Shown here one piece after another: positions 125 through 35,262 of a stretch of 35,262 nucleotides of DNA. Position 1 is the first letter of the stretch. Each line of letters starts with the position of its first letter. The notes below the pieces were generated by a model. The model was not told the DNA's origin. It saw only the letters and a program-made list of their open reading frames with translations, and did no database searches. Source of the DNA: Alphaproteobacteria bacterium (GTDB taxonomy: Bacteria; Bacteroidota; Bacteroidia; Chitinophagales; Chitinophagaceae); assembly GCA_030053915.1 (NCBI GenBank), contig JASGCT010000022.1, forward strand, positions 1 through 35,262, read 5' to 3'. A program made the translations under genes and the position numbers.

Positions 125-250
125 GTCTCTGCGGTGAAAACCTCTGCGCCTCTGCGTCTCTGCGGTGAAAAATTGCGTCTTTATGGTGAAAAACCTCTGC
201 GTCTCTGCGTCTCTGCGGTGAAAAAATCTTTGCCCTTCTACAGTAAAAAA
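121..250. repeat. Array of CTGCGTCTCTGCGGTGAAA-type repeats
   Basis: Near-identical copies of the unit end in GCGGTGAAAA at about 123-140, 151-172 and 194-226. Degenerate copies lie at about 173-193 (GTCTTTATGGTGAAAAA) and 230-250. The 194-226 copy also contains an internal doubled CTCTGCGT. On the minus strand the unit reads TTTCACCGCAGAGACGCAG. Short G/C-rich elements of this type are, from general knowledge, scattered through genomes of several phyla, often beside small nuclease-like genes. Unit spacing is irregular and there are no distinct spacers, so it is not a CRISPR array. Its base composition stands out sharply from the AT-rich surroundings. Confidence 0.8.
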
Positions 251-262
251 TAGCCTCTAAAA

Positions 263-2854: not shown

Positions 2855-2860
2855 AAAAAA

Positions 2861-3655
2861 TTAAATGGCTACTACACCTTTGATGGGTGGGTGATGTACA
2901 TAATTTACAAGTTCAAAATCCGAGAACTTAAAATCAAAAATATTGGTTATTTGGGGGTTGATTTTCATTGTGGGTAGATGATATGGTATTCTAGACAATT
3001 GTAATTGTGCTTGTTCTAAATGGTTTAAGTACAAATGCGCATCGCCGAAACTATGTACAAAGTCGCCTAATTCTAAAGAGCAGACTTGCGCTATCATCAT
3101 TGTAAAAAGCGAATATGAGGCTATATTAAATGGAACGCCTAGGAATACATCGGCACTCCGTTGATACAAATGACAACTTAATTTATTATTTTGAACATAA
3201 AATTGAAACAAAATATGACATGGTTGAAGTGCCATCTTAGGTAAATCGGCAACATTCCATGCTGAAACGATTAAACGGCGGCTATTGGGCGTATTTATAA
3301 TATCATGTATCACTTGAGTTATTTGGTCGATAGTACTACCATCGTAATTTTGCCATGAACGCCATTGATGACCGTAAACAGGACCTAAATTTCCAGATGC
3401 ATCTGCCCATTCATTCCAAATTTTAACGCCGTTATCTTGTAGCATTTTAATATTTGTATCGCCATTTAAAAACCACAATAGTTCATAAATAATACTTTTA
3501 AGATGCACTTTTTTAGTAGTAACTAAAGGGAAGCCCTCGGCTAAATTAAAACGCATTTGATACCCAAAAATACTTTTAGTGCCAATGCCTGTTCTATCGC
3601 CTTTTTCAACACCTTGTTCAATAATCGTATTTAGAAGGGTTAAATAATTTTGCAT
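2861..3655 (-). CDS. thyA: Thymidylate synthase ThyA
   Basis: Converts dUMP to dTMP using methylene-tetrahydrofolate, in the cytoplasm. The 264-residue length equals that of the E. coli enzyme. The catalytic cysteine is Cys146 in [14 protein letters not shown], the same number as in E. coli. Also visible are the N-terminal folate/phosphate region ([18 protein letters not shown]), the dUMP phosphate-binding RR pair ([11 protein letters not shown]), the [19 protein letters not shown] block and the C-terminal VAI. It starts 2 nt after the proline dehydrogenase stop and sits in a packed minus-strand operon. No dihydrofolate reductase gene, the usual neighbour, is present in the window. Confidence 0.97.
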
Positions 3656-3657
3656 AC

Positions 3658-4851
3658 TTAACTTAATCTTTTTTTCAATTCATTTGTGATGAGTGTTATC
3701 TCTTGAGCACTTTGCTCAGAGATACTGGAATTTTCGTTGGCACGCCGCATTAAATAAGGGATCACCTCGGCTATTGTACCGTAAGGAAGGTATTTAGACA
3801 CATTGTATCCAGCTTTTGCTAAATTAAAACTGATGTGATCTTTCATACCAAACAATTGTGAAAAATAAACTCTTGGGTCGTTATTTTTAATGCGGAGGGC
3901 AGCCATTTTTTGTGATGCAAATAAACAACTTTCTTCGTTATGAGTTGCCACAATTACCGAAATATTATTTATGTTTTTTAAGGCATAATCCACTGCGGCA
4001 TTAAAATCTGAATCCGTTTTTTCTTTATTGATATTAATAGGCGAAGGGTATTTATTTTGATTAGCCCGATGCCTTTCTTTTTCCATATAGGCGCCACGAA
4101 CAATTTTTGCACCTAAAATAAAGCCATTTTTTAGAGCAATCGCTTGATGATTCATTTTAAAAAAATCTAAACGGTCATTTAAATACATTTGATAGGTACC
4201 ATACACAACAGCTTTATCTTTATTAAAGTGTTGCATTAATTCTATACATAATCGGTCTATAGGATCTTGAATCCAAGACTCTTCGGCATCTATTAAAACA
4301 CTGATATTTTTTTTTGCGGCTAAATCTACTATCGCATAAGCTCTATGCCTTACCTGATTCCACAATGCGCTTTGCGTTTCAAAGTCGTTAATACCGCTTC
4401 TTAAACGAGGGGATTGGTCTAATCTTTCAAGGAGTTTAACATGACATAAGCCACTAATTTTAATACAAATAAATGGAAAATAATCTTTGGTACTTGCATA
4501 TTCAATCGATTTTAAAAATTGTTCAGTAATTTCATCAAAACCATGCTCATCATTTTTGCCTTCGGTGCCATAATCAAGCATTGACGTTACACCAAAATTA
4601 TAAATTTTAGCCGCTGTAACATCCACAGAGTCTAAATCTGTGCCACCAACAAATTGTTTATAAATGGTTTTTTTGATTAAATATTTTATGGGCAATTTTA
4701 TTCTTAAACAATTAACTATCAACCATCCACCTATTTTATTGAGGAAAGGGTTTCTTAAAATTTGAAACATTCTTTTGGACAATCTTAATTCTGAATTGGA
4801 TTTATATTGATAGGCATTTGCGGTATTTTCTAAATTTAAAATTTCTGACAT
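3658..4851 (-). CDS. Proline dehydrogenase (monofunctional, FAD)
   Basis: Oxidises L-proline to pyrroline-5-carboxylate with FAD, the first step of proline catabolism. The 397-residue protein has the TIM-barrel signatures of the family: [43 protein letters not shown], the [17 protein letters not shown] stretch, and the C-terminal [21 protein letters not shown], whose double Arg binds the proline carboxylate in this family. It is a monofunctional enzyme: there is no C-terminal aldehyde dehydrogenase domain as in PutA, and no such gene is nearby. It lies between the M1 aminopeptidase and thyA with 2-nt gaps on each side. Peptide and proline breakdown would make sense alongside the aminopeptidase, but that link is inferred. 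Confidence 0.93.
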
Positions 4852-4853
4852 AA

Positions 4854-7370: not shown

Positions 7371-7492
7371 GATAAATATTTAATATTTAACGGCGAAGTT
7401 AATAAATTTTTATTAAAGAAACTCTTTTTATTAGGATAAAATTAAAATATTTTATTAAAAAAAAAACTTGAAAAGATGTTGGTATTTTTATT

Positions 7493-7921
7493 TTATTGAA
7501 TTTCAATCATTTCAATATCAAAAATTAAATTTTCACCGGCTAAAAAATGATTGGCATCCAAAGTAATATGATCGTCGTGGATTGCTATAATTTTTACGGT
7601 AAAATTTCGCCCCTCTTCGTCCATCATATTTAATTCCTTCCCAATTTCTGGGTTGTTGTCCTTAGGAAACTTATCCTTAGGAAACTTAAATATCATGTGC
7701 TCTTTTTTAGCGCCATAGCCTTCATTAAAAGGTATTTGAATCGTTTTATGTTCGCCAACTTTCATGCCTTCAACACCTTTATCAAAACCAGCAATCATTT
7801 GCCCAGCACCAACTTTAAATCCTAAAGGTTGTCGTCCTTGACTGCTATCAAAAACATGCCCATTTTCTAGTTTTCCTGTATAATGTACCTTTACATTATC
7901 ACCTTTTTTAACAATACTCAT
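7493..7921 (-). CDS. SlyD-like FKBP-type peptidyl-prolyl isomerase
   Basis: Catalyses cis-trans isomerisation of Xaa-Pro bonds and acts as a folding helper. With the ATG at 7921 the protein has 142 residues, starting MSIVKKGDNVKVHYTGKL. A TTG codon 18 nt further upstream would lie inside a promoter-like box, so the ATG is preferred. The FKBP fold is shown by VHYTGKLENGHVFDSS, GAGQMIAGFDKGVEGMKVGE and the FDIEMIEI end. An inserted segment of about 60 residues (from about EGYGAKKEHMIFKFPKDK to ANHFLAG) matches the insert-in-flap chaperone domain of the SlyD class. No signal peptide and no histidine-rich metal-binding tail are present, so it is probably cytosolic. It is divergent from the glcD-like gene. 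Confidence 0.92.
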   Translation of the reverse strand: MSIVKKGDNVKVHYTGKLENGHVFDSSQGRQPLGFKVGAGQMIAGFDKGVEGMKVGEHKTIQIPFNEGYGAKKEHMIFKFPKDKFPKDNNPEIGKELNMMDEEGRNFTVKIIAIHDDHITLDANHFLAGENLIFDIEMIEIQ

Positions 7922-7965
7922 AATATTTATTTTACGCAAAATACATAAAATTATTTAAAAAATTG

Positions 7966-7973
7966 TATTTTTG
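7966..7973 (+). promoter_or_regulatory. TAnnTTTG -7 box before the glcD-like gene
   Basis: TATTTTTG matches the Bacteroidota -7 consensus TAnnTTTG exactly and lies 4 nt before the ATG at 7978. Transcription would start at or next to the start codon, giving a nearly leaderless mRNA. No convincing -33 TTG element is visible. Confidence 0.5.
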
Positions 7974-7977
7974 CATA

Positions 7978-9363
7978 ATGAAACGAAATCATATAACATT
8001 TTTTGAAAATTTGATAGGAAAACAGAATGTTTTTACTGATAATGACGTATTAGAAAAATATAGTCATGATGAAACCGAAAACATTTCTATTTTACCTAGT
8101 ATTGTTTTAAAACCTTGCACAACTTTAGATGTAAGTGGTATCATGAAATACTGTTTTACCAATAACTTATGCGTTACGCCTAGAGGGGCGGGTACTGGAT
8201 TAAGCGGTGGCGCTATACCCATACTAAATGGCATTGTATTAAGTTTAGAAAACATGAATGCCATTATTTTAATTGACGAAAAAAATCTTCAAGTAACCAC
8301 CCAACCGGGTGTTATTACCGAAGTTTTACAAAATGCTGTTAAAGAAAAAGGACTTTTTTATCCACCCGATCCAAGTAGTCGTGGCACTTGTTTTATAGGC
8401 GGCAACGTGGCAGAAAACAGTGGCGGTCCCAGAGCCGTTAAATATGGTGTAGTAAAAGATTATGTCCTCAATTTAGAAATAGTGCTTCCCAATGGTGACG
8501 TTATGTGGACCGGTAGCAACGTCTTAAAAAATGTAACCGGATATAATATAACCCAACTTATTGTTGGAAGCGAGGGTACTTTAGCTATCATCACTCAAAT
8601 TGTGTTAAAACTTATTCCAGCCCCAAAACATGATCTTGTTTTGATGGCACCATTTAAGAGTGTTCATAAAGCCGCAGAAGCCGTAAGTGCCATTTTTAGA
8701 GCCGGATTTATACCAAGTGCCTTAGAACTTATGGAAATAGATGCCATAAAAATTACGCAAGAATTTGTACCTAATTCAATAATTCCCGTTCATGACGATA
8801 TTTTAGCCCATTTAATAGTTGAGGTAGATGGGAACGACCTAGAAAAACTTTTTTTAGATATGGAAAAAATTTCTGAAGTTTTAGAATCTTTTGATGCCAC
8901 TGAGGTTTTATTTGCTGAAACCGCCCAACAAAAAGATGAACTTTGGAAATTTAGAAGACGCGTTGCTGAAATCGTTAAAAATAACGGCTATACTATCGAA
9001 GAAGATACCGTAGTGCCACGCTACTATTTGCCACAATTAATTGAAGCCATGAAATTTTTAGGACAAAAGCACGGATTTAAAGTTGTTTGTTATGGCCACG
9101 CTGGAGACGGAAATTTGCATATCAGAATAAATCACCCAACAATTAAAAATAGTTATCAAAATCCAATAATGGAAACTATTTTAACCGAACTTTTTGAAGA
9201 AGTGCAACGATTAGGAGGTACCATCTCAGGCGAACATGGTATTGGTTTAATTCAAAAAAAATATCTACCTATTGTATTTAATGATACCCAAATTCAACTT
9301 CATAAAGCCATCAAGAATGTGTTCGACCCAACACATATTTTAAACCCTAATAAAATATTTTAA
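7978..9363 (+). CDS. FAD-linked oxidase, GlcD/D-lactate dehydrogenase family
   Basis: A 461-residue cytosolic flavoprotein of the GlcD/vanillyl-alcohol-oxidase superfamily that oxidises a 2-hydroxyacid such as glycolate or D-lactate. The N-terminal FAD-binding domain shows TPRGAGTGLSGGAIP, FIGGNVAENSGGPRAVKYG and NVTGYNITQLIVGSEGTLAI. The C-terminal cap shows CYGHAGDGNLHIRI and GGTISGEHGIGLIQKKYLP, whose His and Glu belong to the active site of this family. The ATG at 7978 is chosen because a TTG 15 nt upstream sits just before a promoter box. No GlcE or GlcF subunit genes follow, so it may work alone or with an unlinked iron-sulfur partner. The exact substrate is not decidable. Confidence 0.92.
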   Translation: MKRNHITFFENLIGKQNVFTDNDVLEKYSHDETENISILPSIVLKPCTTLDVSGIMKYCFTNNLCVTPRGAGTGLSGGAIPILNGIVLSLENMNAIILIDEKNLQVTTQPGVITEVLQNAVKEKGLFYPPDPSSRGTCFIGGNVAENSGGPRAVKYGVVKDYVLNLEIVLPNGDVMWTGSNVLKNVTGYNITQLIVGSEGTLAIITQIVLKLIPAPKHDLVLMAPFKSVHKAAEAVSAIFRAGFIPSALELMEIDAIKITQEFVPNSIIPVHDDILAHLIVEVDGNDLEKLFLDMEKISEVLESFDATEVLFAETAQQKDELWKFRRRVAEIVKNNGYTIEEDTVVPRYYLPQLIEAMKFLGQKHGFKVVCYGHAGDGNLHIRINHPTIKNSYQNPIMETILTELFEEVQRLGGTISGEHGIGLIQKKYLPIVFNDTQIQLHKAIKNVFDPTHILNPNKIF

Positions 9364-9371
9364 ATTACACG

Positions 9372-9923
9372 TTGAGTTTGGTTCTATATTTAAAAAAAAT
9401 TGTTATTATTATATTGGTTTTAAACGCCTTATCATTAAAGTCCCAAAATCCTTGGTACTGGGGTGGCAACTTTTCACTTGGGCTAGGTGATGGCACCTTT
9501 AATGTAAACTTAACACCCGAATTGACAAAAACTATTTCCAGAGTTTTGGATATGGGTTTCGCATTAAATTTCGGCTATCTTAAAAATTCAAATAGTAATT
9601 TTGAATATCAAAAAATCAGCTATGGTATGGCAGTTATTTCAAGATTGTGGATAGCCCAACATGTAGTTATTTCTTTAAATCCCGAGTATAATTGGTTACA
9701 TGTTACAACAAAAGATCCTAGTACTCAATTACAAATAAAAACCTTTGCCCAAGCCCCAAGTATTTTAGTTGGAGTAGGCTATGGTAGTAGAGACATTGGC
9801 GATAAAGTATTTTTTGTCTCTGTTTTATTAGATATTTTAAACGACCCGAATTCACCATATTATACGGGTGGTGTTAAACTCCCATTTTTTAGAGCTGGTT
9901 TTGGATTATATTTAGGTAGATAA
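9372..9923 (+). CDS. Small secreted/outer-membrane beta protein of unknown function
   Basis: Not recognised. The 183-residue product has an N-terminal hydrophobic signal (YLKKIVIIILVLNALSLKSQ) followed by alternating glycine- and aromatic-rich beta strands (GNFSLGLGDGTF, MGFALNFGYLK, SILVGVGYGS, FRAGFGLYLGR). This suggests a small outer-membrane beta-barrel or barrel-like protein. The frame has no ATG before the signal peptide. The best start is the TTG at 9372, 8 nt after the glcD-like stop, or the TTG two codons later. It is probably co-transcribed with the oxidase gene. Nothing in the sequence says what it binds or transports. Confidence 0.7.
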   Translation: MSLVLYLKKIVIIILVLNALSLKSQNPWYWGGNFSLGLGDGTFNVNLTPELTKTISRVLDMGFALNFGYLKNSNSNFEYQKISYGMAVISRLWIAQHVVISLNPEYNWLHVTTKDPSTQLQIKTFAQAPSILVGVGYGSRDIGDKVFFVSVLLDILNDPNSPYYTGGVKLPFFRAGFGLYLGR

Positions 9924-9989
9924 TGACATCAATTAAAAGTATTCTAAATTAACATATAACGATTTGTTTCTTTGGTAAACGTATTAGGA

Positions 9990-10883
9990 TTACATGATAT
10001 AAAATTCATGGGGTTCAATATGATTAGGAATATCATTTTCTTTTAATAACTCTTTGATATTTATTTCAATTTTTCGAGTAATCGTCTTTATTGGCGTATC
10101 ACTTGGTGAATTTTGAAAGGGGTTTTGTAATTGTATGGATGACCGTTCTAATAAGAAAAATATTGACGCAATAGCAACGATTAACACTAACTCAAAAGCT
10201 AAAGGATAATCATGAAAAGTTATCGTTAAAATTACAATAAAAACATAAATTGCCCAATGCAAATATTTTCTATAGCCTGCTGGAAATACTGTAGATTTTA
10301 TGCGTTCGCACATTCCCTGATACGTTATAAAATTAGCTAAAATATCATTGATTTTAACATAAGAGTAAGTGTCTATTTGATCAGTATCTCGTAACCTCGA
10401 AATATGTTCAAAATTTTGCTGCATGATTCCTAATGGTTTAATGCTATAATTTACCAAATCCTTAAAATCCGCCTTGCTTAAATAGTCTGAAACATTATCA
10501 ATAGGATTTTGATTTCTCAATGTTTGACCTAATGAATACAACCAAGCAATATGTCGATACGCAATAATTTTGATTTCTTTGTTGTTACCCTCTTTTATAT
10601 GTGCATTCATTAATAAAATTAAATTTCTGCTATCATTTACAATACTACCCCAAATCTTACGTGCCTCCCACCAACGATCATAGGATTGACCAATTTTAAA
10701 AGATAATAAAATTGAAATTGCAGAACCAATAAATGCAGGTATAGAAGGATTAAGGTCTGGTATTAAATTATGAAATTTCCATGACAAGACATTGGTAGCA
10801 AAAATTACTATAGCCACAATAAACATATCCTTTCTTATAATTCCTAAGTTATAACTTAAAGGGAATTTTTTATCTAATAACAT
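9990..10883 (-). CDS. Bestrophin-family (UPF0187) membrane channel
   Basis: A 297-residue inner-membrane protein of the bacterial bestrophin family, which forms pentameric ion channels. The diagnostic block is the SYDRWWEARKIWGSIVNDSRNL stretch at about 67-88. Transmembrane segments lie at about 20-38 and 47-64, with a further hydrophobic pair around 212-245. The family length of about 290-300 residues is respected. It is convergent with the preceding small secreted protein and stands alone on its strand, with a -7-type promoter box at 10909-10916. The ion specificity (chloride in eukaryotic members, cations reported for one bacterial member) cannot be told here. Confidence 0.92.
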   Translation of the reverse strand: MLLDKKFPLSYNLGIIRKDMFIVAIVIFATNVLSWKFHNLIPDLNPSIPAFIGSAISILLSFKIGQSYDRWWEARKIWGSIVNDSRNLILLMNAHIKEGNNKEIKIIAYRHIAWLYSLGQTLRNQNPIDNVSDYLSKADFKDLVNYSIKPLGIMQQNFEHISRLRDTDQIDTYSYVKINDILANFITYQGMCERIKSTVFPAGYRKYLHWAIYVFIVILTITFHDYPLAFELVLIVAIASIFFLLERSSIQLQNPFQNSPSDTPIKTITRKIEINIKELLKENDIPNHIEPHEFYIM

Positions 10884-10908
10884 ATTCTTAGTGCCTTTTT
10901 AATTTTAG

Positions 10909-10916
10909 CAAAGATA
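10909..10916 (-). promoter_or_regulatory. TAnnTTTG -7 box for the bestrophin gene
   Basis: On the minus strand the sequence reads TATCTTTG, an exact match to TAnnTTTG, followed by C. It lies 25 nt upstream of the ATG at 10883. No clear -33 element is visible in the AT-rich flank. Confidence 0.5.
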
Positions 10917-11143
10917 TTATTTTATTTTTAATATTTTTATTTTATTTTATAAAATTTATTTTTTCTGCTTCCTGTTTTAAATACGCAACTATTTTTTGGG
11001 TAACTTTATGATTGATAAAAAGTGCAAAGTTTCAGATTTTAAACGTATCATAATATAACCTCAGATTTTGTAAATTAAAATAAGCGAAACATGTTTTTAT
11101 AATTTTTGAAAAAATAAAATATGAAAACTTCATATATAATACG

Positions 11144-11151
11144 TAATTTTG
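11144..11151 (+). promoter_or_regulatory. TAnnTTTG -7 box for the HsdR-N-like gene
   Basis: TAATTTTG followed by C matches the Bacteroidota -7 consensus. It lies 35 nt before the ATG at 11187, leaving a short leader. A -33 TTG at ideal spacing is not obvious. Confidence 0.45.
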
Positions 11152-11186
11152 CATTGTAAAACATAAATCAAATATTTTTTTTTAAC

Positions 11187-11612
11187 ATGACGTTTAAACC
11201 CAATTTTAATATTAATAATAATACAAAACCGGCTAAAATATTTGATATTGTTAGAAAAAAATGGGTGGTGTTAACACCCGAAGAAACAGTTCGACAATAC
11301 TATATTCACCAATTAGTTTATGTTTTAAAATACCCCCCCTCTTTAATTTCTGTTGAAAAAAAAATTAAATGTAATCAAAAATTATTACGTTACGATATAG
11401 TGGTTTATAAAGAACGAAAGCCTTGGATTTTAATTGAATGTAAGTCCCCCGAAATGAGTTTAAATGAAAATGTACTTAGTCAAGTCTTTAATTATAATTA
11501 TTTTTTAAAATCTAGTTATTTAGGTATCGTTAATGGAAAAGAAGCCCATTATTTTCAATTTAATGCCCAAGGAAATTTAATAAAATTAAACGAACTGCCA
11601 AATTTTTCGTAA
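11187..11612 (+). CDS. Solo HsdR N-terminal-type PD-(D/E)XK domain protein
   Basis: A 141-residue protein matching the N-terminal nuclease-type domain of type I restriction R subunits, standing alone. The PD-(D/E)XK core is visible as Asp70 (LLRYDIVVY) and Glu84-x-Lys86 (PWILIECKSP). There is no helicase domain and no HsdM or HsdS gene nearby, so it is not part of a restriction system in this window. Stand-alone proteins of this type are common single-copy genes in Bacteroidota with no settled function. It is followed after 10 nt by dxs, and its stop codon forms the first bases of the dxs promoter box. Confidence 0.8.
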   Translation: MTFKPNFNINNNTKPAKIFDIVRKKWVVLTPEETVRQYYIHQLVYVLKYPPSLISVEKKIKCNQKLLRYDIVVYKERKPWILIECKSPEMSLNENVLSQVFNYNYFLKSSYLGIVNGKEAHYFQFNAQGNLIKLNELPNFS

Positions 11613-24132: not shown

Positions 24133-24157
24133 AACAAATATCTTCACAGAATTTGTT
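24133..24157. terminator. Weak inverted repeat between convergent DinB and eutC genes
   Basis: AACAAAT (24133-24139) and ATTTGTT (24151-24157) are exact inverted repeats around an 11-nt loop, between the two convergent stop codons. The stem has a single G:C pair. It may be a bidirectional terminator, but the match could be chance in AT-rich DNA. Confidence 0.3.
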
Positions 24158-24897
24158 TATAAATTATTTTTGGAAACATACGAACATTTCAACGTTACGC
24201 CTGATGTTTTTTGCCTTAACATTTCTAAACACAATTCGTAACACTGCTCACTTGCTAATTTTATAGATAATCCTAAAGGATGAATGTTAGATATACATTG
24301 CCTACACTCATCTGTTTTACCAACTTCTGGTTGATATATTAAATACAGCCCCAAACTATCCCTAACCGTCAAACCGGGTCGCTCACCAATAATCATAATG
24401 GCTATGTTGGCTTTTAAATAATAGCCAATTTCATTTTCCACAGCAACCCTTGCCTGATCTACAATACATAGCGGCGCCAAACTCAATTTATTTTTGGTAA
24501 AAATACGCCATAAATTTTTTACTAAAACCGCCGCATAGTTTTGAACTGCCTCTGATGATAAACCATCGCCAATTATTATTGAAATATCACACCGTTGCGG
24601 TTTTAATTTCAATAGCTGATTCTTAGAATGCTTATCAAGCCTCCTTCCCAAATTGGGATTTAATAAATAATCGTTTCGATTGCGAACCTGAGTATGTAAT
24701 AACAAAACCCGACTGATGTTGCTCAGTTTTAATGCCAATTCTGAAACGACTAATGGACTATTGACCGCCATTTTTGCTAAGGCTAAGCCTAATTTGAAAT
24801 TTAAGACGGCTGGGGTCGTTAACGAAACCCCAGTTTCTGGTAAAAATATTCTGGCGATACTTTTGGGTACCTCAGGTTGTGCTGAAACTGGTCTCAT
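24157..24897 (-). CDS. eutC: Ethanolamine ammonia-lyase small subunit
   Basis: Small subunit of the adenosylcobalamin-dependent enzyme that splits ethanolamine into acetaldehyde and ammonia; it forms part of the cobalamin site. At 246 residues it is shorter than the roughly 295 of E. coli, because the non-conserved N-terminal arm is missing. Conserved blocks include SIARIFLPETGVSLTTPAVLNF, DISIIIGDGLSSEAVQNYA, IVDQARVAVENEIGYYL, IMIIGERPGLTVRDSLGLYL and TDECRQCISNIHPLGL. It follows eutB with a 4-nt ATGA overlap, consistent with stoichiometric co-translation. Confidence 0.94.
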   Translation of the reverse strand: MRPVSAQPEVPKSIARIFLPETGVSLTTPAVLNFKLGLALAKMAVNSPLVVSELALKLSNISRVLLLHTQVRNRNDYLLNPNLGRRLDKHSKNQLLKLKPQRCDISIIIGDGLSSEAVQNYAAVLVKNLWRIFTKNKLSLAPLCIVDQARVAVENEIGYYLKANIAIMIIGERPGLTVRDSLGLYLIYQPEVGKTDECRQCISNIHPLGLSIKLASEQCYELCLEMLRQKTSGVTLKCSYVSKNNL

Positions 24898-26276
24898 GTT
24901 AATAATTTTTGGGCTAATTTTTTGGAAGTACTTGGTTTTATAATATATTGATTGTTATCGTCAAAAATATGATGCTGCCTCAACCAATTGGCAAACTCTG
25001 GCGCCGGCACTTTACCTAAAACTTTTCTAAGATATAAGGCATCATGAAAAGAAGTAGATTGATATTGAAGCATCGTGTCTTCAGAACCAGGCACCCCCAT
25101 GATATAACTGCAACCTGCAACGCCAATAATAGTTAATAAAACATCTAAATCGTCTTGGTCCATTAAAGTATGATTGGTATAACATATATCTAAACCCATA
25201 TTCAAACCTAATAGCTTGCCACAAAATAAATCCTCTAAAGCCGCCCGCACGATTTGCTTTTCATCATATAAATATTCGGGTCCTATAAACCCAACCACCG
25301 AATTCACCAAAAAAGGCTTAAACTTTTTGGCAACACTATATGCCCTTGCCTCACAAGTTTGCTGGTCGATTCCATGATGCCCATCCGCCGATAATGCCGA
25401 ACCCTGACCCGTTTCAAAATACATAATTTGACGTGAATTGCCATTACGTTTTAGTTCTAAGCCCATGTGATATACCTCATCTAATAACCCCAATGATATC
25501 CCAAAACTAGCATTTGCTTTTTCAGTGCCAGCAATAGACTGAAATATTAAATCTATAGGCACTTGTTGTTGAATCATTTTTTTGGTATCCAAAATATGCC
25601 CCAAAACACAGGATTGAATCGGAATCGTAAATTTTTGCCGAAGCCTCTCTAACATATTAATTAAAATAATATGTTGCTTGATGTTTTGTGAGGCCGGATT
25701 AATCCCAACCACCGCATCACCATTGCCATGCAACAAACCATCAACTATAATTTTTAGGATTTCTTGTGGATTATCTGTAGGATGGTTGGGTTGCAAGCGT
25801 GTGGCTAAGCTATTGGGCAACCCGATGCTAGTCCTAAATTGTGTAATATTTGAAATCTTTTGCGACACGAGTATTAAATCTTGATTCCGCATAATCTTAG
25901 ATACCGCCGCCGCCATCTCGGGCATAATGCCATCTGCTATTGAACGTATAATAGCACCATCTGTATTTGTTGCTAATAAAAAATCTCTAAATCCGCCAAT
26001 CGTTAAATGCTTGATTTTTTGAAAAGCACTGGGCTGATGTGCGTCAATTATCAATCTACTCACCTCATCTTTTTGAGGATCTATTATAGGGTCTTGTATA
26101 AAAATCGTTAATGGCAGATCTGCCAGAACTATTTGAGCCGCAACTCTTTCAAGTTCATCAATCGCCGCAACCCCTGCTAAAAGATCGCCAGAACGACAGG
26201 GACTGGCCTTTGCTAAAACAGTTTTAAGGTCTTCAAATGTATAGTTATGTTGATATAAAATTGTTTTAAATGCCAT
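24894..26276 (-). CDS. eutB: Ethanolamine ammonia-lyase large (catalytic) subunit
   Basis: Catalytic subunit of ethanolamine ammonia-lyase. The 460 residues align almost number-for-number with the E. coli enzyme: Arg160 and Gln162 in TRLQPNHP, Asn193 in VVGINPA, Glu288 in MYFETGQGSALSA, and Asp363 in LGLDICYTNH. All substrate-contacting residues therefore appear intact. The eutBC pair stands alone: no EutA reactivase, no EutD/E enzymes, no EutH permease and no microcompartment shell genes are present within the window. Acetaldehyde handling must therefore be encoded elsewhere. A -7 box lies upstream at 26300-26307. The start ATG at 26276 gives the normal N-terminus. Confidence 0.97.
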   Translation of the reverse strand: MAFKTILYQHNYTFEDLKTVLAKASPCRSGDLLAGVAAIDELERVAAQIVLADLPLTIFIQDPIIDPQKDEVSRLIIDAHQPSAFQKIKHLTIGGFRDFLLATNTDGAIIRSIADGIMPEMAAAVSKIMRNQDLILVSQKISNITQFRTSIGLPNSLATRLQPNHPTDNPQEILKIIVDGLLHGNGDAVVGINPASQNIKQHIILINMLERLRQKFTIPIQSCVLGHILDTKKMIQQQVPIDLIFQSIAGTEKANASFGISLGLLDEVYHMGLELKRNGNSRQIMYFETGQGSALSADGHHGIDQQTCEARAYSVAKKFKPFLVNSVVGFIGPEYLYDEKQIVRAALEDLFCGKLLGLNMGLDICYTNHTLMDQDDLDVLLTIIGVAGCSYIMGVPGSEDTMLQYQSTSFHDALYLRKVLGKVPAPEFANWLRQHHIFDDNNQYIIKPSTSKKLAQKLLT

Positions 26277-26437: not shown

Positions 26438-27586
26438 ATGAAAAAAATCATGTTCAGTATTTTAAAATTATTCGTTTTTTCTGCCTGTTTTATAGTGCTA
26501 GAAACAACAAAAGCTCAAGTAACAAATGCTATTAGGGTAACCAATGGTACTATCACACCTCAAAATCCCCGTGTTATTGCTGGACAATCTATCACTTTTA
26601 GTTATACCGGAAACACAGGTTATGTTTTAGACACTGTTTTATTAACCGACCAGTCCGGAACACGGTTAATTACCAATGCCCCTAATAGTATTACAATTAA
26701 TAATGTTGATATGAACACCAGACTTTGGGTAAAATATAAACCTGTTCAGCCAAGTGCACTCAGTCTTACCAAAGTTTTTAAAAGAAATGGTTTTCCCGAC
26801 TCAACGGTTACCGAACATATTATCAGCCAAATTACCCAATTTCCTGCTGTCATAACTAATTTTTTAAATGATTTTGTGTTTATACCCGGCGGCACCTTTG
26901 TTATGGGTGCAACTCCTAAACAACTTCAGGCTAATGGAGATCAATACTCAGTGTGGTGGAGTGGTCCAGCTACCCAAGCAGTAACTTTATCGCCCTATTA
27001 TATAAATAAGTACGAAGTTACCCAAGCACTCTGGAAAGTAATTATGTCTAATCAAAACCCCAGTGTCTATTTAGGTGATAACGACCCTGTTGAAAATGTA
27101 AGTTGGGATGATGTTCAAACTTTTATTGCTAATTTGAATGCCTTAACTGGCCGCAATTTCCGATTACCAACTGAGGCGGAATGGGAATTTGCCGCCCGAG
27201 GTGGTAATCCAAACTCAACTGTAATAGATCAGTACTATTATGCTGGCGGTGACGTGGCTAATAACGTAGGTTGGAACTATTATAATACCAACTCCGGTTC
27301 AAGACACCAAGCCGTTGGTCAAAAAGCGCCTAATTTAGCGGGCTTATACGATATGTCTGGTAATGTTTATGAATGGTGTAACGATCAAAATGGTAATTAT
27401 AGTTCAACCCTTGTTACCGATCCCAATCCCTATTATGGCAATAACGTAGCTTATAATTATAATATTAGAGGGGGCGCTTATTCCTTCGGTACCAATAATA
27501 GTGCTTTAAGAGTAAGTTATAGGTGGATAGCGTCACGCAATTCAAGACAGCCCTTTTGGGGATTTAGATTAATTGAAAAAAGATAA
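26438..27586 (+). CDS. Secreted protein: divergent InlB-type repeat plus FGE-sulfatase (SUMF1) domain
   Basis: A 382-residue exported protein. A signal peptide (1-27, ending TTKAQ) is followed by one divergent InlB B-type repeat (about 29-100: NGTITPQNPRVIAG, NTGYVLDTVLLTD). After a linker comes a full FGE-sulfatase fold (about 146-382): FVFIPGGTFVMGA, YYINKYEVTQALWKVIM, NPVENVSWDD-like PVENVSWDDVQ, FRLPTEAEWEFAARGG, LYDMSGNVYEWCND, RGGAYSF, and FWGFRLIEK. The copper-binding/catalytic cysteines of true formylglycine-generating enzymes are absent near LRVSYRWIASRNS. It is therefore probably a binding or structural domain, as in GldK-like and lectin-fold relatives, not a sulfatase activator. 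It lies 126 nt before the giant surface protein, which shares the InlB-type repeat. Confidence 0.88.
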   Translation: MKKIMFSILKLFVFSACFIVLETTKAQVTNAIRVTNGTITPQNPRVIAGQSITFSYTGNTGYVLDTVLLTDQSGTRLITNAPNSITINNVDMNTRLWVKYKPVQPSALSLTKVFKRNGFPDSTVTEHIISQITQFPAVITNFLNDFVFIPGGTFVMGATPKQLQANGDQYSVWWSGPATQAVTLSPYYINKYEVTQALWKVIMSNQNPSVYLGDNDPVENVSWDDVQTFIANLNALTGRNFRLPTEAEWEFAARGGNPNSTVIDQYYYAGGDVANNVGWNYYNTNSGSRHQAVGQKAPNLAGLYDMSGNVYEWCNDQNGNYSSTLVTDPNPYYGNNVAYNYNIRGGAYSFGTNNSALRVSYRWIASRNSRQPFWGFRLIEKR

Positions 27587-27712: not shown

Positions 27713-30700
27713 ATGTCAAATAAATTTAAAAATATTTTTTTAAGAATTAACATACGAATATTTTTTATCATTTTAGTGATTTGTATATTTAGTTCTAAAG
27801 TGAATTGTCAAACAATTACTTTAAATACTCAAATTGAACAAGTACCACCAGCCGATACCTTAAACTTAATTAGCGGGGCTGATAATTATCGATTTAATTA
27901 TACCACGCCTGATGGCTATTATCTTCAAATTGTAACTTATAATGGTAACATAGTTCGTAACGATTCGGTTAATGGATTTACAGTATATCACGTCGCGTCA
28001 AACCAAAATCTTCGTTTAGAATATGTTAAAATATCTGAATACTCAATTCTACTAAAAACAGTACTTGATACTCAAATTAATATTGTTCAATTAGGATTAG
28101 CCCAACCGTACCGATATCAATATGCACCAATTAATGGTTATTATTTAGATAGCGTCAATTTAAGAGGTGTAAATTATAGCCACGATTCTACCAACGGCTT
28201 TACATTCGAGGTTCAAAATAACCTCAACGCTTTAAAGCTAACCTATGTTAAAGGATTGATTATTCTTAATACCCAAGTAGAAACACTGCCTCCGCTTAAT
28301 GTTATAAACTTCTTACCTGGCGTTAATAAATATCGTTTTTTATATAGTCCACCGCCTAATTACAATTTAGATAGCCTAAAAATTAATAATGTTATTGGAA
28401 ATAACGATTCAACCACCGGATATACAGTAACCAATTTTACTACAAACCAAAATTTAACACTTTTTTATCAATTTGTGTACCCCAATTCTTTTGTCTTACG
28501 TACCTTATCCGACCAATATCAAACCCCTGTACTGGAATTACCCTATAATGATAGGTATCGTTTAACGTATACACCGCCCTATAGTTATTATTTAGACCAG
28601 CTATTCTATAATAAAAGTCTCTTCAATAAAGACTCTATCTATGGTAGTGCATCTTATTATAGCATAAAATTTCAAACCGGATTTACTATTTACAATTCAG
28701 CAGGCGGTAATCAAAATATAACTTTAGTTTATCAGTATTATAACCCTAATTCTTTTGTGTTAAATACTATTACTGAAAACCCCATACTTCAGCCTTTAAT
28801 TTTTTATTATAATGGACCGGTTCGTCTTACTTATAACCCGCCCTTAGAATATTATTTAACAGATGTTAAAGTGAATAACAGTAACCCTATAAGCGGCAGT
28901 GCCGATTCTGTCAATAGTTTTACCTATCGTTTTGCTACCACAAACCAAACTAATATAATATTAGACTATCAATATGTCACACCAATTGTTATCAGATATT
29001 CAAGAATTACCGATATTGCCTCGCGTGATACTACTTATCAATTTTTCTATCGCAATCATGTCTTACCAAATTATACCTTTATCAACAATATCCCAGCAGG
29101 ATATGCTTTCGACAGCCTCGTATATAATAATGTCCGCCGAACAGACGCCAATATTAATACACAATTCTCTGTTTCTAATTTGAATACCGATGCCACCATT
29201 CGCTTATATTATCACCGCCTCTATTATAATATTGCTACATCTGCCAACACCGGCGGCACTTTAACACCTGCTAATAATCGTGCTTATTACGACTCAAACT
29301 ATACCTATTATTTTACTCCCAATACCAACTACCGTGTAGATAGTGTGTTTATCAATGGCAGTTTTATGCCAAACCTCAATGCTAGCTCAAGTTATACTTT
29401 TAACCGCATTCGTACTAATAATGCTATTCGTGTTGTTTTTAGAAGATACGTTTTTGATATTACAACCACTACAAATATAGGTGGTACTATCACGCCATCA
29501 CATAATGCAATCTTAGATAACTTTGACACCATACATTTTTCAGCCAATATTGGCTATGTTATAGATAGTTTACTTGTAAATGATGTTAAAACTAATTTTG
29601 GAAACGGCTACCTGCGTTTGGGACCCATCAGAGCCTCACAAACTATTTCACTCTTTACTTCAAGACAAAAATTTACATTTAATATAGCCAAAATTAATAC
29701 AAATTTAAATACCACTAACACTTTTGATACCACTATTTATTATGATTCGTTTTTTTCGGTAAACTTTACACCGCCATTAGGCTATGTGTATGATAGTATT
29801 ATTGTAAATGGTACGCAATTAAACAATTGGTCAGAAACGATAAATTATGATAGCGTTCGTCAGAGTTATGATATAAAAGCTTATTTTTCGCTCAAGAAGT
29901 TTCAAATTACAACGAATGTGAATATACCACAAGGTAGTATTACACCCTCTTTTATTACAAATTATGGAACTTCAATAAATATAACCTATACTGCCACTAC
30001 AGGTTATACCATTGATAGCGTCAAAGTTAACAATCAAATTTTATCTAATTTTGGTAATACCTACACCAATAATAATGTTACAGAAAATATTAGTATTGAA
30101 GTCTTTGCTTCCAGAACTAAATTTAACCTCATTACCTCAGTAAATATTCCTGCTGGCGGCACCATTTCACCGTCAACTACAATTTTTTATGATAATCTTT
30201 TTGTGGTTAGCTATAATGCCAATAGAGGATATACAATGGATAGTGTTATGATTATTAATGGTTTAGATACCATAACCCTATATTCTGGAAATTCCATACC
30301 TTTTTTTAGTGTCAGAAATAATATTATAGTAAATTTATTTGTTACGCCGATACCTGTTAATATTAATGCCAGGGCGAATGTGAATGACCGAGGGACGGTT
30401 AATAGTGGTTCCAGTTTCTATGGTCAAAGCTTTACTTTAAATATTCAGGCTAACAATGGTTATTTTATAGATACTTTAAAAATAGGTTCGGCATTTTATG
30501 TGATTCCGTTTCATAGAACCAGACTAAACTATACCATTAATAATATTGTGGCTGATAGCCAAGTTATTGTTATTTTTGATAGTGTTGGCGTTGTGGATCG
30601 AGACCATGATGGACTTATTGACATTTACGCTATAGAACAACTAAATAATATACGTTACGATGTGTCGGGTGCTCGATATAAAGAAAGTGTTATCGACGAA

Positions 30701-33700
30701 GGTGATAATTTAGGATGTCCGGACGGCGGATGTTTTGGATACGAACTTACTAATAATTTAAACTTCTTAGATACTAATAGTTATTTAAGTGGTGAAATTG
30801 ATACTAATTATATTAGAAATCAGGGTTGGAAACCCATTGATGATTCGGTTGGATATTCCTTATTCTTAAATGGCAATAATTTTACAATTTCTAACCTATA
30901 TATCAATGCAACTAAAGATAGTGTAGGATTATTTGTTTATTTAGATAGCGCTAGAATACTTAATTTAAATTTTAGTAATGTGTTTGTAAGAGGGGTTAAT
31001 AAAGTTGGGGTTTTAGCAGGTGTTATTAACAATTCAACTATACAAAATATCAATGTACTTAATAATAACGATACCAATACAATTGCATCCATCTCAGGAC
31101 AAGCCCAAATAGGTGGTTTAACGGGGGTTTTAAAAGATAGTTCGATTGTAAATTCTATTCATATATTAAGCACTTTAAGCGGTACAAACAGAATTGGGGG
31201 TATCGCAGGAAGCGTTCAAAATAATGCTTTAATTAATAATAGTTATTCTAGGGTATTTATTGATGGCGGTAATACCATTGGTGGCATTGCTGGTGTTGTT
31301 TTAGATAGTTCTTTTATATTTACGTCATATAGTCAAGCTTATCTAAAAGGGGATTCTATTTTAGGTGGTTTAACAGGTTGTTTAATAAATAAATCTAGTA
31401 TTGGGAATTCATTTTTTATAGGAGACTATCGTCCAGAATTTAATATTGTTCAAAATATTTCTAGTACCATGCCAAGTTTATTAGGTGGTCTTGCTGGTGT
31501 TGTAAACAATCAATCTACAATTTCTAATTCTTATGGACGTTCCATAAATATTAATGGTAATAACCAAATTGGTGGCTTGGTAGGTATTTTAGACCAATCT
31601 AGTGGTATTGTAAATACTTATGTTACTGAATCAAAAGTACAAGGGATTAGTAAAGTAGGCGGTATTGTTGGCGTAGCCCAAAATTCAAGTCAAATTAATA
31701 ATTCATATAGTACTGCCATTGTTAAAGCGTCGTCTAATGTTGGAGGTATTGCTGGTGTGAACCTGAGTGCTAGTGCTATAAATGTCTATTGGGATACTGT
31801 AACATCTTTACAAAACACCGATGCTTTAAGTACTACACAAGGCTTGTCGTCTCAAACTTTAAAAGATAGCTCTGGACTTGTTAAAAACTTAGGTAACCAA
31901 TTTGTTTATAATAGCATACCAGGATCATTTTATCCCAAATTATTAAGTACCGAAGATGGTAGTTTAATTAATGCTCAAGACACCTTGGTTGGACAAAATG
32001 CAGGTAATTATTCTAATATTTTTATTATATGGAATAACCAAGATCAAAATTTTGAAGCATTTAATAATCTGGCTAGTATTGATAGTTTTATAATATTATT
32101 AGATACATTACCTAAACTTATGACATATTTAGATACTGTATCAGGTGAAAATAGTAGTTATGTTTATCAAATTTCTAATTTTAAACCTGAGACTTATTAT
32201 TATAAAATTTATAATACAGGTTCTCAAATTTACACAGATATTATAAGTTATACATATAATCCACCTTTATATAATATTATAACAAGTGCAACCCCGGGTA
32301 GTACCATAGATCCGAGTTCTACTGCTTATTTATATAATAATGTGGATGTTAATTTTAATGTTGACCCTGCTTACAATTTAGATAGTTTGGTTGTTAATGG
32401 ACATGTTATGTTATTACCCAACAGTCCCTATAACATAAATTCAATATATAGTAATCAATCCATTTCTTTATATACGTCACGCAGTCAATATAGTATTTTA
32501 ACACAACAAAATGTGCCAAATTCTGTTATTATATCGCCTTCGGTATCCACTATATTATTTGATAGTATGTATCAAGTAACTTTTACACTGAATGCTGGAT
32601 ATAAATTAGACAGCGTTATTGTTGATGACAATAAAGTAATGGCATTTAATAGCTATACGTTTAGCAATATTCGTGAAAACCATTATATTACAGTATTTGC
32701 TTCGCTTTCCAATCAAAGCATTACAACGTCAAGCAACTCAATTGCAGGATCTATTACGCCGTCATTCACACCACTTTATGGCGATACGGTTGACATTGAT
32801 TATGCTGCTAATTACAATGCCACCATTGATAGTATATTAGTGAATGGTGTTAAACAAAATCAAATTCAGAATGATACAGGCACCATAACACTTATAGCGA
32901 ATCAAAACTATTCTATTCAATTATTTAGTCATTTCAATGTAACTCAAATAACAACCATCGAAGCAACAATTGGTGCAAACATTAGTTCTAGTAAGCAATC
33001 TTTAACCTATTTTGATACTGCTAATATTGTATTTAACCCATCTGTTGGTTATATATTAGATAGTGTTGTATTAAATAATGTTAAGCTACCAATTCGTCTT
33101 GATACTTTGTTCTCGCCATTTAGTTATGCTCTTTACAATCGTTTTGGTAATGATACGTTTAAAGTATATGCTTCTCGACAGATCTTTAATGTGTTTAAAA
33201 CATATCATAATAGTTCGCTTAGTACTATTATTTCGGCAAATTATAAAGTGTATTATGATTCTTCTATAACTTTAGAATTCCCTAGGGGTAGCGGTGATTT
33301 CATAGATAGTATTTATATAAATTATGTTAAAGAAAAACCACCTTATCAATATCCGCATGTATTTGATACCATAAAATCTTCAAAAAGTATAGATATCTTT
33401 TATTCTGTTAGACAATTTAATGTAATAACCCATACCAATAATAATGGTGGTAGTATTTTAGGACCTTCACAGCCTGTTAATTATTTTTCTGATATTAGTG
33501 TATATTTTAGAGCCTTGCCTGGTTATAAAGTGGATAGTTTAGTTATCAATGGTAAAGATACAATTTTGAATGATACGGTTAACTTTTATAATTTATTGGT
33601 TGATAAAGACTATGATATAACTTTATATACGTCTAAGTTAGGTTATCAATTATATAAAAATTCAAGTTCAGGTGCTCAAATAACATCAAATAAAACGAGA

Positions 33701-35262
33701 TTTGCAACTGGAGACCAAGACAGTTTGTTCTTAAACGCTTCACGTGGTTATAAACTGGACAGTTTAGTTATTTATGATAGCAGTTCCAATTCTGCAATAA
33801 CTATTTTAAACCCCGGATCGAATTACGTTATTGATAGTTTACCAGCTGGTAATGTTTTGGTAAGTTTGTATGCCAGTCTTCAATTGAATCAAGTTTCAGT
33901 TAATTTAAACAACCTTGCTGGCGCTCAATATACACTTGAAAATGATAGTATCGGTTTAGATTCTTTTGCTGTTGTAAATTTGCAATTAACACAAGGTTAT
34001 TTTATCAATGCTGTGTATGTTAATAATATATTAATACCTACCCCAACAAATTCTACTATCTTAGTTAAAAATACCGATGGTACCGATTTAAATATTTATA
34101 TTGATTTAGAAAGAGAACTCAATGAAATTATTATTACCAATAGAGATCCTAATTTAGGTTTTACTCCTGATAATCTTTATGCTTATTATGGTTCAACTTC
34201 GCTTGTAAGTGTCGTAGCTCAAATTGGTTATGTCATAGATTCTATAGTTGTTAATGGTCGATTAATTAAAATTCCTTCGCAATCTCCATTTTATACCTAT
34301 ACCTTTAATAATGTTCGTGGTGATTCTACTATAAATATTAGTTTTAAACGTAAAGGTTTATACACCATTTCAACAACTATAAATTATGGTGGTTCAATTA
34401 CATCAACAACCTTAGTGGATACTGGAAATAATTTTACTGTAACATATATGCCTTATTCTGGTTTTAAAGTGGACAGTGTTTTTGTAGATAATATTTATGT
34501 TAAAGACTCATTTAAATCTTATACCTTTTATAGTCTCAATAACGACCATACCATTGTAGTTACATTTAAAAGTTTATATTATAGTTTAAGCGTCAATAAT
34601 TTTAATTTAAACATTACTAATTTAATTTGTGCTAATGCTAATAACGGTGCGTTAAATATTTCTGTAAAAGATACATTATTAACCTATATTTATAAACTTG
34701 CTTCAAGGTCTAAAAACGATACCTCATCAGCCAATACCCAAACATATTCTGGATTATCGGCTGGTGTTGATAGTATCGAAATATGGACAACAGATACCAC
34801 CGTAAATCATGTTAAATTTGCTTTTACTATAACCCAACCACAACCTATTTCGGCTTATAGTTATGTACAAACAAACGATAAATTATTACAACTTAATTTA
34901 GCAGGTGGCACCCTTTATACCATTCATTTAAACAATAAAACTTGGCAAACAACTGAAAGCATCAATACCATTCAATTAAATTCAGGTATCAATATTATTC
35001 ATGTTACTGACGAAAAATCTTGTTTAGGTTCTTATTCCGATACTATTTTAATTATTGATAATGTGGTATTATATCCCAATCCGGCTCAAAATTCAGTACA
35101 TATTAATTTAGGCGATTTTAGTGTTCTAGATGTTTTAGTAACTATTGAAATCCTAAATGAAAGAGGTGTTTTAGTTAAACGTCAACAATTTAATACTCAA
35201 GATCATGTTAATTTAGATATTTCAAATTTACCGAATGGTATTTATTTTGCTAAAATAATTGG
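27713..35262 (+). CDS. Giant T9SS-secreted surface protein with InlB-type and GLUG repeats (3' end outside window)
   Basis: One frame stays open from the ATG at 27713 to the window edge: 2,516 codons with no stop. A signal peptide (about 1-33, ending KVNCQ) is followed by six degenerate repeats of 70-80 residues (about 35-503, to nt ~29222) with a YYLDSL-type centre. Next come six divergent InlB B-type repeats (nt ~29224-30590), each with GGTITPS-like and GYxxDSxxVN motifs. A DRDHDGLIDIYAIEQLNNI segment introduces about nine GLUG-like repeats (nt ~31003-31800; IGGIAG... NSYS, ending INVYWDT). More InlB-type repeats follow (nt ~32270-34570), then a degenerate SprB-like segment (LICANANNGALNISV, TITQPQPI). 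The end is a type A T9SS sorting domain (VVLYPNPAQNSVHINL ... LPNGIYFAKII); only the last few residues are likely missing. It is probably a cell-surface adhesin. Confidence 0.93.
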   Translation, partial: MSNKFKNIFLRINIRIFFIILVICIFSSKVNCQTITLNTQIEQVPPADTLNLISGADNYRFNYTTPDGYYLQIVTYNGNIVRNDSVNGFTVYHVASNQNLRLEYVKISEYSILLKTVLDTQINIVQLGLAQPYRYQYAPINGYYLDSVNLRGVNYSHDSTNGFTFEVQNNLNALKLTYVKGLIILNTQVETLPPLNVINFLPGVNKYRFLYSPPPNYNLDSLKINNVIGNNDSTTGYTVTNFTTNQNLTLFYQFVYPNSFVLRTLSDQYQTPVLELPYNDRYRLTYTPPYSYYLDQLFYNKSLFNKDSIYGSASYYSIKFQTGFTIYNSAGGNQNITLVYQYYNPNSFVLNTITENPILQPLIFYYNGPVRLTYNPPLEYYLTDVKVNNSNPISGSADSVNSFTYRFATTNQTNIILDYQYVTPIVIRYSRITDIASRDTTYQFFYRNHVLPNYTFINNIPAGYAFDSLVYNNVRRTDANINTQFSVSNLNTDATIRLYYHRLYYNIATSANTGGTLTPANNRAYYDSNYTYYFTPNTNYRVDSVFINGSFMPNLNASSSYTFNRIRTNNAIRVVFRRYVFDITTTTNIGGTITPSHNAILDNFDTIHFSANIGYVIDSLLVNDVKTNFGNGYLRLGPIRASQTISLFTSRQKFTFNIAKINTNLNTTNTFDTTIYYDSFFSVNFTPPLGYVYDSIIVNGTQLNNWSETINYDSVRQSYDIKAYFSLKKFQITTNVNIPQGSITPSFITNYGTSINITYTATTGYTIDSVKVNNQILSNFGNTYTNNNVTENISIEVFASRTKFNLITSVNIPAGGTISPSTTIFYDNLFVVSYNANRGYTMDSVMIINGLDTITLYSGNSIPFFSVRNNIIVNLFVTPIPVNINARANVNDRGTVNSGSSFYGQSFTLNIQANNGYFIDTLKIGSAFYVIPFHRTRLNYTINNIVADSQVIVIFDSVGVVDRDHDGLIDIYAIEQLNNIRYDVSGARYKESVIDEGDNLGCPDGGCFGYELTNNLNFLDTNSYLSGEIDTNYIRNQGWKPIDDSVGYSLFLNGNNFTISNLYINATKDSVGLFVYLDSARILNLNFSNVFVRGVNKVGVLAGVINNSTIQNINVLNNNDTNTIASISGQAQIGGLTGVLKDSSIVNSIHILSTLSGTNRIGGIAGSVQNNALINNSYSRVFIDGGNTIGGIAGVVLDSSFIFTSYSQAYLKGDSILGGLTGCLINKSSIGNSFFIGDYRPEFNIVQNISSTMPSLLGGLAGVVNNQSTISNSYGRSININGNNQIGGLVGILDQSSGIVNTYVTESKVQGISKVGGIVGVAQNSSQINNSYSTAIVKASSNVGGIAGVNLSASAINVYWDTVTSLQNTDALSTTQGLSSQTLKDSSGLVKNLGNQFVYNSIPGSFYPKLLSTEDGSLINAQDTLVGQNAGNYSNIFIIWNNQDQNFEAFNNLASIDSFIILLDTLPKLMTYLDTVSGENSSYVYQISNFKPETYYYKIYNTGSQIYTDIISYTYNPPLYNIITSATPGSTIDPSSTAYLYNNVDVNFNVDPAYNLDSLVVNGHVMLLPNSPYNINSIYSNQSISLYTSRSQYSILTQQNVPNSVIISPSVSTILFDSMYQVTFTLNAGYKLDSVIVDDNKVMAFNSYTFSNIRENHYITVFASLSNQSITTSSNSIAGSITPSFTPLYGDTVDIDYAANYNATIDSILVNGVKQNQIQNDTGTITLIANQNYSIQLFSHFNVTQITTIEATIGANISSSKQSLTYFDTANIVFNPSVGYILDSVVLNNVKLPIRLDTLFSPFSYALYNRFGNDTFKVYASRQIFNVFKTYHNSSLSTIISANYKVYYDSSITLEFPRGSGDFIDSIYINYVKEKPPYQYPHVFDTIKSSKSIDIFYSVRQFNVITHTNNNGGSILGPSQPVNYFSDISVYFRALPGYKVDSLVINGKDTILNDTVNFYNLLVDKDYDITLYTSKLGYQLYKNSSSGAQITSNKTRFATGDQDSLFLNASRGYKLDSLVIYDSSSNSAITILNPGSNYVIDSLPAGNVLVSLYASLQLNQVSVNLNNLAGAQYTLENDSIGLDSFAVVNLQLTQGYFINAVYVNNILIPTPTNSTILVKNTDGTDLNIYIDLERELNEIIITNRDPNLGFTPDNLYAYYGSTSLVSVVAQIGYVIDSIVVNGRLIKIPSQSPFYTYTFNNVRGDSTINISFKRKGLYTISTTINYGGSITSTTLVDTGNNFTVTYMPYSGFKVDSVFVDNIYVKDSFKSYTFYSLNNDHTIVVTFKSLYYSLSVNNFNLNITNLICANANNGALNISVKDTLLTYIYKLASRSKNDTSSANTQTYSGLSAGVDSIEIWTTDTTVNHVKFAFTITQPQPISAYSYVQTNDKLLQLNLAGGTLYTIHLNNKTWQTTESINTIQLNSGINIIHVTDEKSCLGSYSDTILIIDNVVLYPNPAQNSVHINLGDFSVLDVLVTIEILNERGVLVKRQQFNTQDHVNLDISNLPNGIYFAKII

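What the first reader, a model, noticed from the sequence alone, without database searches (positions are those of the whole stretch)
26438..27586. InlB-type repeat fused to a cysteine-less SUMF1 fold, next to a giant protein with the same repeat
The secreted 382-residue protein carries the same kind of GTITPxN...GYxLDTV repeat that builds the 126-nt-downstream giant protein, here as a single copy in front of an FGE-sulfatase domain. The catalytic cysteines of formylglycine-generating enzymes are not visible. A shared repeat in adjacent secreted genes suggests a two-component surface system. In it, the SUMF1 protein could bind or anchor the giant fibre, as GldK-like proteins do structurally in the T9SS. 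No published pair of this kind is known to me.
Basis: partly seen in the sequence, partly recalled or inferred. Interest (0 to 1): 0.6.

Follow-up and report, generated by a model that had tools for sequence, protein, structure and literature searches.

The report
Secreted lectin-fold protein with one repeat
The gene encodes a secreted, non-enzymatic binding protein of the same fold as known hypervariable bacterial binding proteins, with a common repeat in front; sitting next to a giant protein with that repeat is unremarkable here, because the genome holds about 300 copies of it.

Summary
The anatomy is confirmed. ORF 26438-27586 has a signal peptide, one InlB-like repeat (residues 36-101) and a SUMF1/FGE domain (144-379) without the catalytic cysteines. 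The next gene, 126 nt downstream, has about 22 such repeats and a T9SS sorting tail.

The proposed two-component system is not supported. The same genome has 305 of these repeats in 31 genes, and those genes often cluster. P0001's repeat is closer to repeats in several other genes than to its neighbour's (best neighbour rank 13 of 304). The N-terminal cassette has no match in 395 other genomes of the order. None of 104 related SUMF1 genes is fused to such a repeat, and none in the 16 same-order loci inspected lies beside a repeat gene. The real GldK lies elsewhere.

By sequence and predicted fold the SUMF1 domain is closest to TvpA, the Treponema variable protein of a diversity-generating retroelement (DGR): Z 30.7, against about 26 for FGE and PorK. 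Two sister genes carry DGR variable regions, the genome keeps a broken DGR, and a same-order genome has an intact-looking one. P0001 itself has no variable region.

Best reading: a fixed, non-catalytic lectin-fold ligand-binding protein with a shuffled N-terminal cassette.

The parts
26438..27586 (+). P0001: secreted InlB-like repeat + SUMF1/FGE-fold protein, 382 aa
26438..26515 (+). signal peptide, predicted cleavage TTKA|QVTN (Bacteroidetes Q-rule)
   Evidence: read from sequence, hydropathy; rule from PMC5837995; no signal-peptide program was run
26543..26740 (+). single InlB-like repeat (residues 36-101)
   Evidence: predicted all-beta, mean pLDDT 83
26741..26815 (+). linker 'SLTKVFKRNGFPDS' shared with two GH19 chitinases and an ORF on contig C141: part of a shared N-terminal cassette
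26867..27574 (+). SUMF1/FGE-type C-type-lectin fold, catalytic cysteines absent
27467..27571 (+). segment equivalent to the FGE active site and the DGR variable region (residues 344-378); not template-like
27713..35262 (+). P0002: giant protein with about 22 InlB-like repeats, cut by the contig end
30581..32212 (+). P0002 segment without repeats, reads GLUG-like (not scored by Pfam)
   Evidence: read; no Pfam hit
35069..35257 (+). T9SS C-terminal sorting domain of P0002 (PF18962, positions 1-62 of 75)

Best explanation
P0001 is a Sec-secreted, non-catalytic ligand-binding protein. Its SUMF1 domain is an FGE-subtype C-type-lectin (CLec) fold of the TvpA kind, with the C-terminal segment (residues 344-378) forming the binding face. 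It is a sequence-fixed cousin of the DGR variable proteins in this genome's own SUMF1 family. The N-terminal InlB-like repeat plus linker is one of several interchangeable N-terminal parts in that family (others: PEGA, fn3-like, kinase-like) and probably serves as a stalk, spacer or docking module. The adjacent giant is one of many repeat-built T9SS surface proteins. Shown: domains, missing Cys pair, predicted fold, family membership, lack of template-like DNA, genome-wide spread of the repeat. Inferred: the ligand-binding role, the location after Sec export, the role of the repeat.
For: Best PDB match by sequence and by structure is TvpA: 1.2e-19 single sequence, 4.2e-65 profile, Foldseek rank 1 at 4.7e-17, Z 30.7, 1.5 A, 216 residues, 35% identity, against Z 26.9 PvdO, 26.2 PorK, 25.9 FGE. 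The quick tree separates P0001 and the 12 other non-Gld SUMF1 domains of the genome from true FGE and GldK/GldJ (support 98); within it P0001 is sister to C44/C131/C21/C42/C110/C31 with support 81 only. C20 and C110 members end in variable regions matching one template, with mismatches concentrated at template adenines (12/31 vs 5/97, p 1.6e-5; 13/29 vs 7/96, p 1.2e-5). A same-order genome has SUMF1 target, accessory gene, full-length RT and template, with 16 of 17 mismatches at A. [quoted passage not shown] FGE-sulfatase is a frequent DGR target domain (PMC4159848). Cassette sharing with GH19 chitinases.
Against: P0001 has no template-like variable region (62 of 121 bases match against 93-94 of 116 in true variable regions), so ligand binding rests on fold and kinship alone. 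It lacks both a T9SS sorting tail and a convincing lipobox, so surface exposure is not shown. The FGE fold also serves as a protein-docking hub in PorK (PMC12421860), so a scaffold role is not excluded. The tree was the quick one, with many weakly supported forks.
Confidence: 0.68

Rival explanations
1. One reading: P0001 and P0002 form a two-component surface system in which the SUMF1 protein binds or anchors the giant fibre through the shared repeat.
For: Same strand, 126 nt apart. The only other repeat+SUMF1 fusion found in the genome (C31) also lies 12 nt from a repeat+T9SS-tail gene, and the repeat+GH19 pair on C20 precedes one too. The PorK FGE fold is a docking hub (PMC12421860).
Against: Repeat genes cluster anyway: 13 of 31 have a repeat neighbour, 9 of 27 outside the two loci in question, so two of two is expected about one time in nine (arithmetic). 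P0001's repeat ranks P0002's best copy 13th of 304, and C31's repeats rank their neighbour 28th to 160th of 300, whereas most of the C20 tandem's repeats rank a neighbour first or second, so the test can see local kinship. No counterpart in 395 genomes or in 104 SUMF1 genes. Most repeat+T9SS giants have no such partner.
Confidence: 0.1
2. P0001 is a scaffold or docking protein of the periplasm working like GldK/PorK, unrelated to the giant.
For: PorK is within the structural match list (Z 26.2) and GldK is the top NCBIfam hit (76 bits). A Sec signal without sorting tail fits the periplasm.
Against: Far below the GldK cut-off (350 bits). The genome has its own GldK before GldL/M/N-like genes on C149 and a GldJ on C126, which fall outside P0001's group. 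TvpA is the clearly closer fold.
Confidence: 0.12
3. P0001 is an enzyme of the wider SUMF1 superfamily with another chemistry (PvdO-, EgtB- or OvoA-like).
For: PvdO is the second-best structural match (Z 26.9).
Against: All such NCBIfam models score far under their cut-offs. No DinB-like domain as in EgtB/OvoA was found by Pfam. Kinship is with DGR variable proteins.
Confidence: 0.07

Closest known systems
TvpA, Treponema denticola DGR variable protein (PDB 2y3c)
   Same: FGE-subtype CLec fold throughout, no FGE cysteine pair, C-terminal segment at the same place; Z 30.7, 1.5 A, 35% identity
   Different: P0001 has no adenine-mutated variable region or linked retroelement, has an N-terminal InlB-like repeat, and has a plain Sec signal in place of a lipoprotein signal
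Formylglycine-generating enzyme (SUMF1, PDB 1y1e, 2q17)
   Same: Fold (Z about 25.5, 2.4 A)
   Different: The active-site cysteine pair is missing; separate from true FGEs in the tree
GldK/PorK of the T9SS ring (PDB 9mzu)
   Same: Non-catalytic FGE fold (Z 26.2), same phylum
   Different: No convincing lipobox, not in the gld operon, below the family cut-off; the genome has a separate GldK
Divergent InlB B-repeat (PF18998, Flg_new_2)
   Same: GTITP...GYxLDSV motif; a sister gene in the genome passes the Pfam cut-off
   Different: P0001 and P0002 copies fall below the cut-off; membership rests on intermediates

Membership tests
Formylglycine-generating enzyme | SUMF1/FGE fold (PF03781) | tested here: met
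   E 1.5e-37; Z about 25 to FGE structures
Formylglycine-generating enzyme | catalytic cysteine pair | tested here: not met
   Cys only at 17 and 314; signature absent, present in 7 control FGEs
DGR variable protein (TvpA type) | FGE-subtype CLec fold | tested here: met
   TvpA top match, Z 30.7
DGR variable protein (TvpA type) | variable region matching a template with adenine-specific differences | tested here: not met
   The only template found matches C20 and C110, not P0001
DGR variable protein (TvpA type) | cognate reverse transcriptase | tested here: not met
   Only a truncated RT remnant in the genome, on another contig; the MAG is 95% complete
GldK/PorK | equivalog score | tested here: not met
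   76 bits against a cut-off of 350
GldK/PorK | gldKLMN operon | tested here: not met
   The genome's GldK lies on C149 (L076) followed by GldL/M/N-like genes
GldK/PorK | lipoprotein signal | tested here: inconclusive
   A Cys in the hydrophobic stretch (FSAC) but a hydrophobic tail follows it; TTKA|Q fits signal peptidase I; read by eye
Divergent InlB B-repeat | PF18998 above cut-off | tested here: inconclusive
   P0001 no hit, P0002 11.6 bits; related gene on C20 30.5 bits; repeats join by profile
T9SS cargo | C-terminal sorting domain | tested here: not met
   P0001 ends with the SUMF1 domain; P0002 has PF18962 at 39.7 bits

The most novel reading that the evidence does not exclude
In this lineage secreted effectors without a T9SS tail (SUMF1 lectin folds, GH19 chitinases) carry one or a few InlB-like repeats as docking tags that attach them to neighbouring repeat-built, T9SS-exported giants, a kind of repeat-mediated surface assembly. 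It would cover the loci on C134 (window), C31 and C20.
Probability: 0.1. Interest if true: 0.65.

Novelty: new variant of a known kind. Interest (0 to 1): 0.3.

Why it matters
It adds an N-terminal architecture (InlB-like cassette) to the non-catalytic FGE-type lectin folds, and places it in a genome where the same domain family includes DGR-diversified members and fixed ones. That makes it a usable case for asking how such binding domains are recruited, shuffled and frozen after a retroelement breaks. The claim of a dedicated giant-fibre anchoring pair is not borne out.

Tried and rejected
GldK-like T9SS role: below cut-off, separate GldK present. Active FGE: no cysteine pair. P0001 as a current DGR target: its 3' end does not match the template. 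Search of genome contigs with P0001 alone found nothing; with the SUMF1 alignment it gave 80 SUMF1 loci, none carrying the fusion. Fold search with the repeat model gave no match better than E 0.13, so the repeat's fold is not assigned. A mixed alignment with repeats and SUMF1 domains misaligned and was dropped. The careful tree did not finish; the quick one is quoted. Adjacency in relatives was inspected gene by gene only for the 16 same-order loci; for the 80 genome-contig loci only the presence of repeat genes was listed (one weak hit, not a fusion).

Full report
Check of the observation. The ORF at 26438-27586 encodes 382 residues, and the next ORF starts 126 nt downstream and runs off the window at 35260. 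The window is the whole contig C134 of a 2.7 Mb assembly (95% complete, 166 contigs), so the giant protein lacks its last residues. Pfam places FGE-sulfatase at residues 144-379 (1.5e-37) and a T9SS sorting tail on P0002. A repeat profile grown from the P0001 N-terminus gives one copy in P0001 and 22 in P0002.

Cysteines. P0001 has Cys 17, inside the signal peptide, and Cys 314 in the conserved EWC. The FGE signature is absent, while seven SUMF1 proteins of related genomes carry it. The profile alignment to solved FGEs puts their cysteine pair in the segment where P0001 reads RGGAYSFGTNNSALRVSYRW.

The repeat is genome-wide. The P0001 N-terminus finds 116 hits at E up to 1 in its own genome. 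On the fetched stretches the profile counts 305 repeats in 31 genes, many of them giants of 2500-6200 residues with T9SS tails. The closest relatives of the P0001 N-terminus are two GH19 chitinases on C20 and a truncated ORF on C141, which share the repeat and the linker KVFKRNGFPDS. By pairwise score P0001's repeat ranks the best copy in P0002 only 13th of 304. As a control, most repeats of the tandem genes on C20 rank a neighbour first or second, so the method does detect local kinship where it exists.

Adjacency. Thirteen of 31 repeat genes have another repeat gene as a neighbour. A second repeat+SUMF1 fusion, on C31 and cut by the contig end, lies 12 nt from a repeat+T9SS gene. Outside the two loci 9 of 27 repeat genes have such a neighbour, so two of two would be expected about 11% of the time (my arithmetic). 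This is suggestive at most. The remaining SUMF1 genes have no repeat gene as immediate neighbour; those on C110, C42 and C20 follow a PEGA-type gene instead (PEGA by Pfam for C20, by eye for the other two).

Relatives. No other genome of the 396 searched in the order matches the P0001 N-terminus at E 1e-4. In 96 loci from other genomes, holding 104 SUMF1 genes, there is no fusion to the repeat; one weak repeat hit occurs in an unfused gene of L085, and in the 16 same-order loci no SUMF1 gene has a repeat gene beside it. No genome of the same genus is held, so adjacency in close relatives could not be tested.

What the SUMF1 domain is. The best solved relative by sequence is TvpA. The AlphaFold model is confident over most of the domain (many blocks of pLDDT 90-98) and matches TvpA at Z 30.7, 1.5 A over 216 residues with 35% identity, about four Z units above PvdO, PorK and FGE (Foldseek also ranks TvpA first). 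TvpA is a DGR variable protein of FGE-type CLec fold (PMC6328139). The N-terminal repeat, modelled alone, is all-beta, without a reliable fold match.

The DGR link. On contig C20 a SUMF1 gene ends in a variable region, followed by an accessory-type start fused to the C-terminal half of a reverse transcriptase (YMDD present, in-frame stop, first half missing) and a template. A second variable region ends the 1073-residue SUMF1 protein on C110. Differences fall on template adenines (p about 1e-5 each). The C31 fusion is 91.5% identical to the C110 target over 165 residues but its 3' end is missing. A same-order genome has a complete-looking element: SUMF1 target, accessory gene, 343-residue RT frame, template with 16 of 17 mismatches at A. 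P0001 itself has no such region.

Mechanism. I conclude that P0001 is exported by Sec (TTKA|Q fits the Q-rule, PMC5837995) and works as a fixed ligand-binding lectin-fold protein, with the repeat as spacer or dock. Shown are anatomy, predicted fold, kinship and absence of catalytic and template features; binding and location are inferred.

Novelty. The InlB-like+SUMF1 architecture was not found outside this genome, and my one paper search on the combination found no report of it. Each part is of a known kind, so I rate it a new variant of a known kind with modest interest.

Noticed in passing
L063 (G000:C20) 816-1977, minus strand: Decayed diversity-generating retroelement: template 816-944, variable region 1850-1977 in a PEGA+SUMF1 gene, RT reduced to its C-terminal half with a stop.
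   Followed up: partly
L065 (G000:C110) 825-949, minus strand: Second variable region from the same template, in a 1073-residue fn3-like+SUMF1 protein on another contig.
   Followed up: partly
L193 (G046:C106) 4572-7335: Complete-looking DGR in a same-order genome: SUMF1 target, accessory gene, RT with YMDD, template; 16 of 17 mismatches at adenine.
   Followed up: partly
L068 (G000:C31) 1-6086, minus strand: Second repeat+SUMF1 fusion (1268+ residues, cut by the contig end), 12 nt after a repeat+T9SS gene; its SUMF1 domain is 91.5% identical to the DGR target on C110.
   Followed up: partly
L063 (G000:C20) 4543-11293: Tandem of two repeat+GH19 chitinase genes and a repeat+T9SS-tail gene; several of their repeats are each other's closest relatives.
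   Followed up: partly
whole genome G000: Large expansion of InlB-like repeats: 305 copies in 31 genes, single genes up to 6213 residues, about 183 kb of coding sequence in a 2.7 Mb genome.
   Followed up: partly
window 24157-26276, minus strand: Two genes directly upstream, divergently oriented, read like ethanolamine ammonia-lyase small and large subunits (eutC, eutB); judged by eye, not searched.
   Followed up: no
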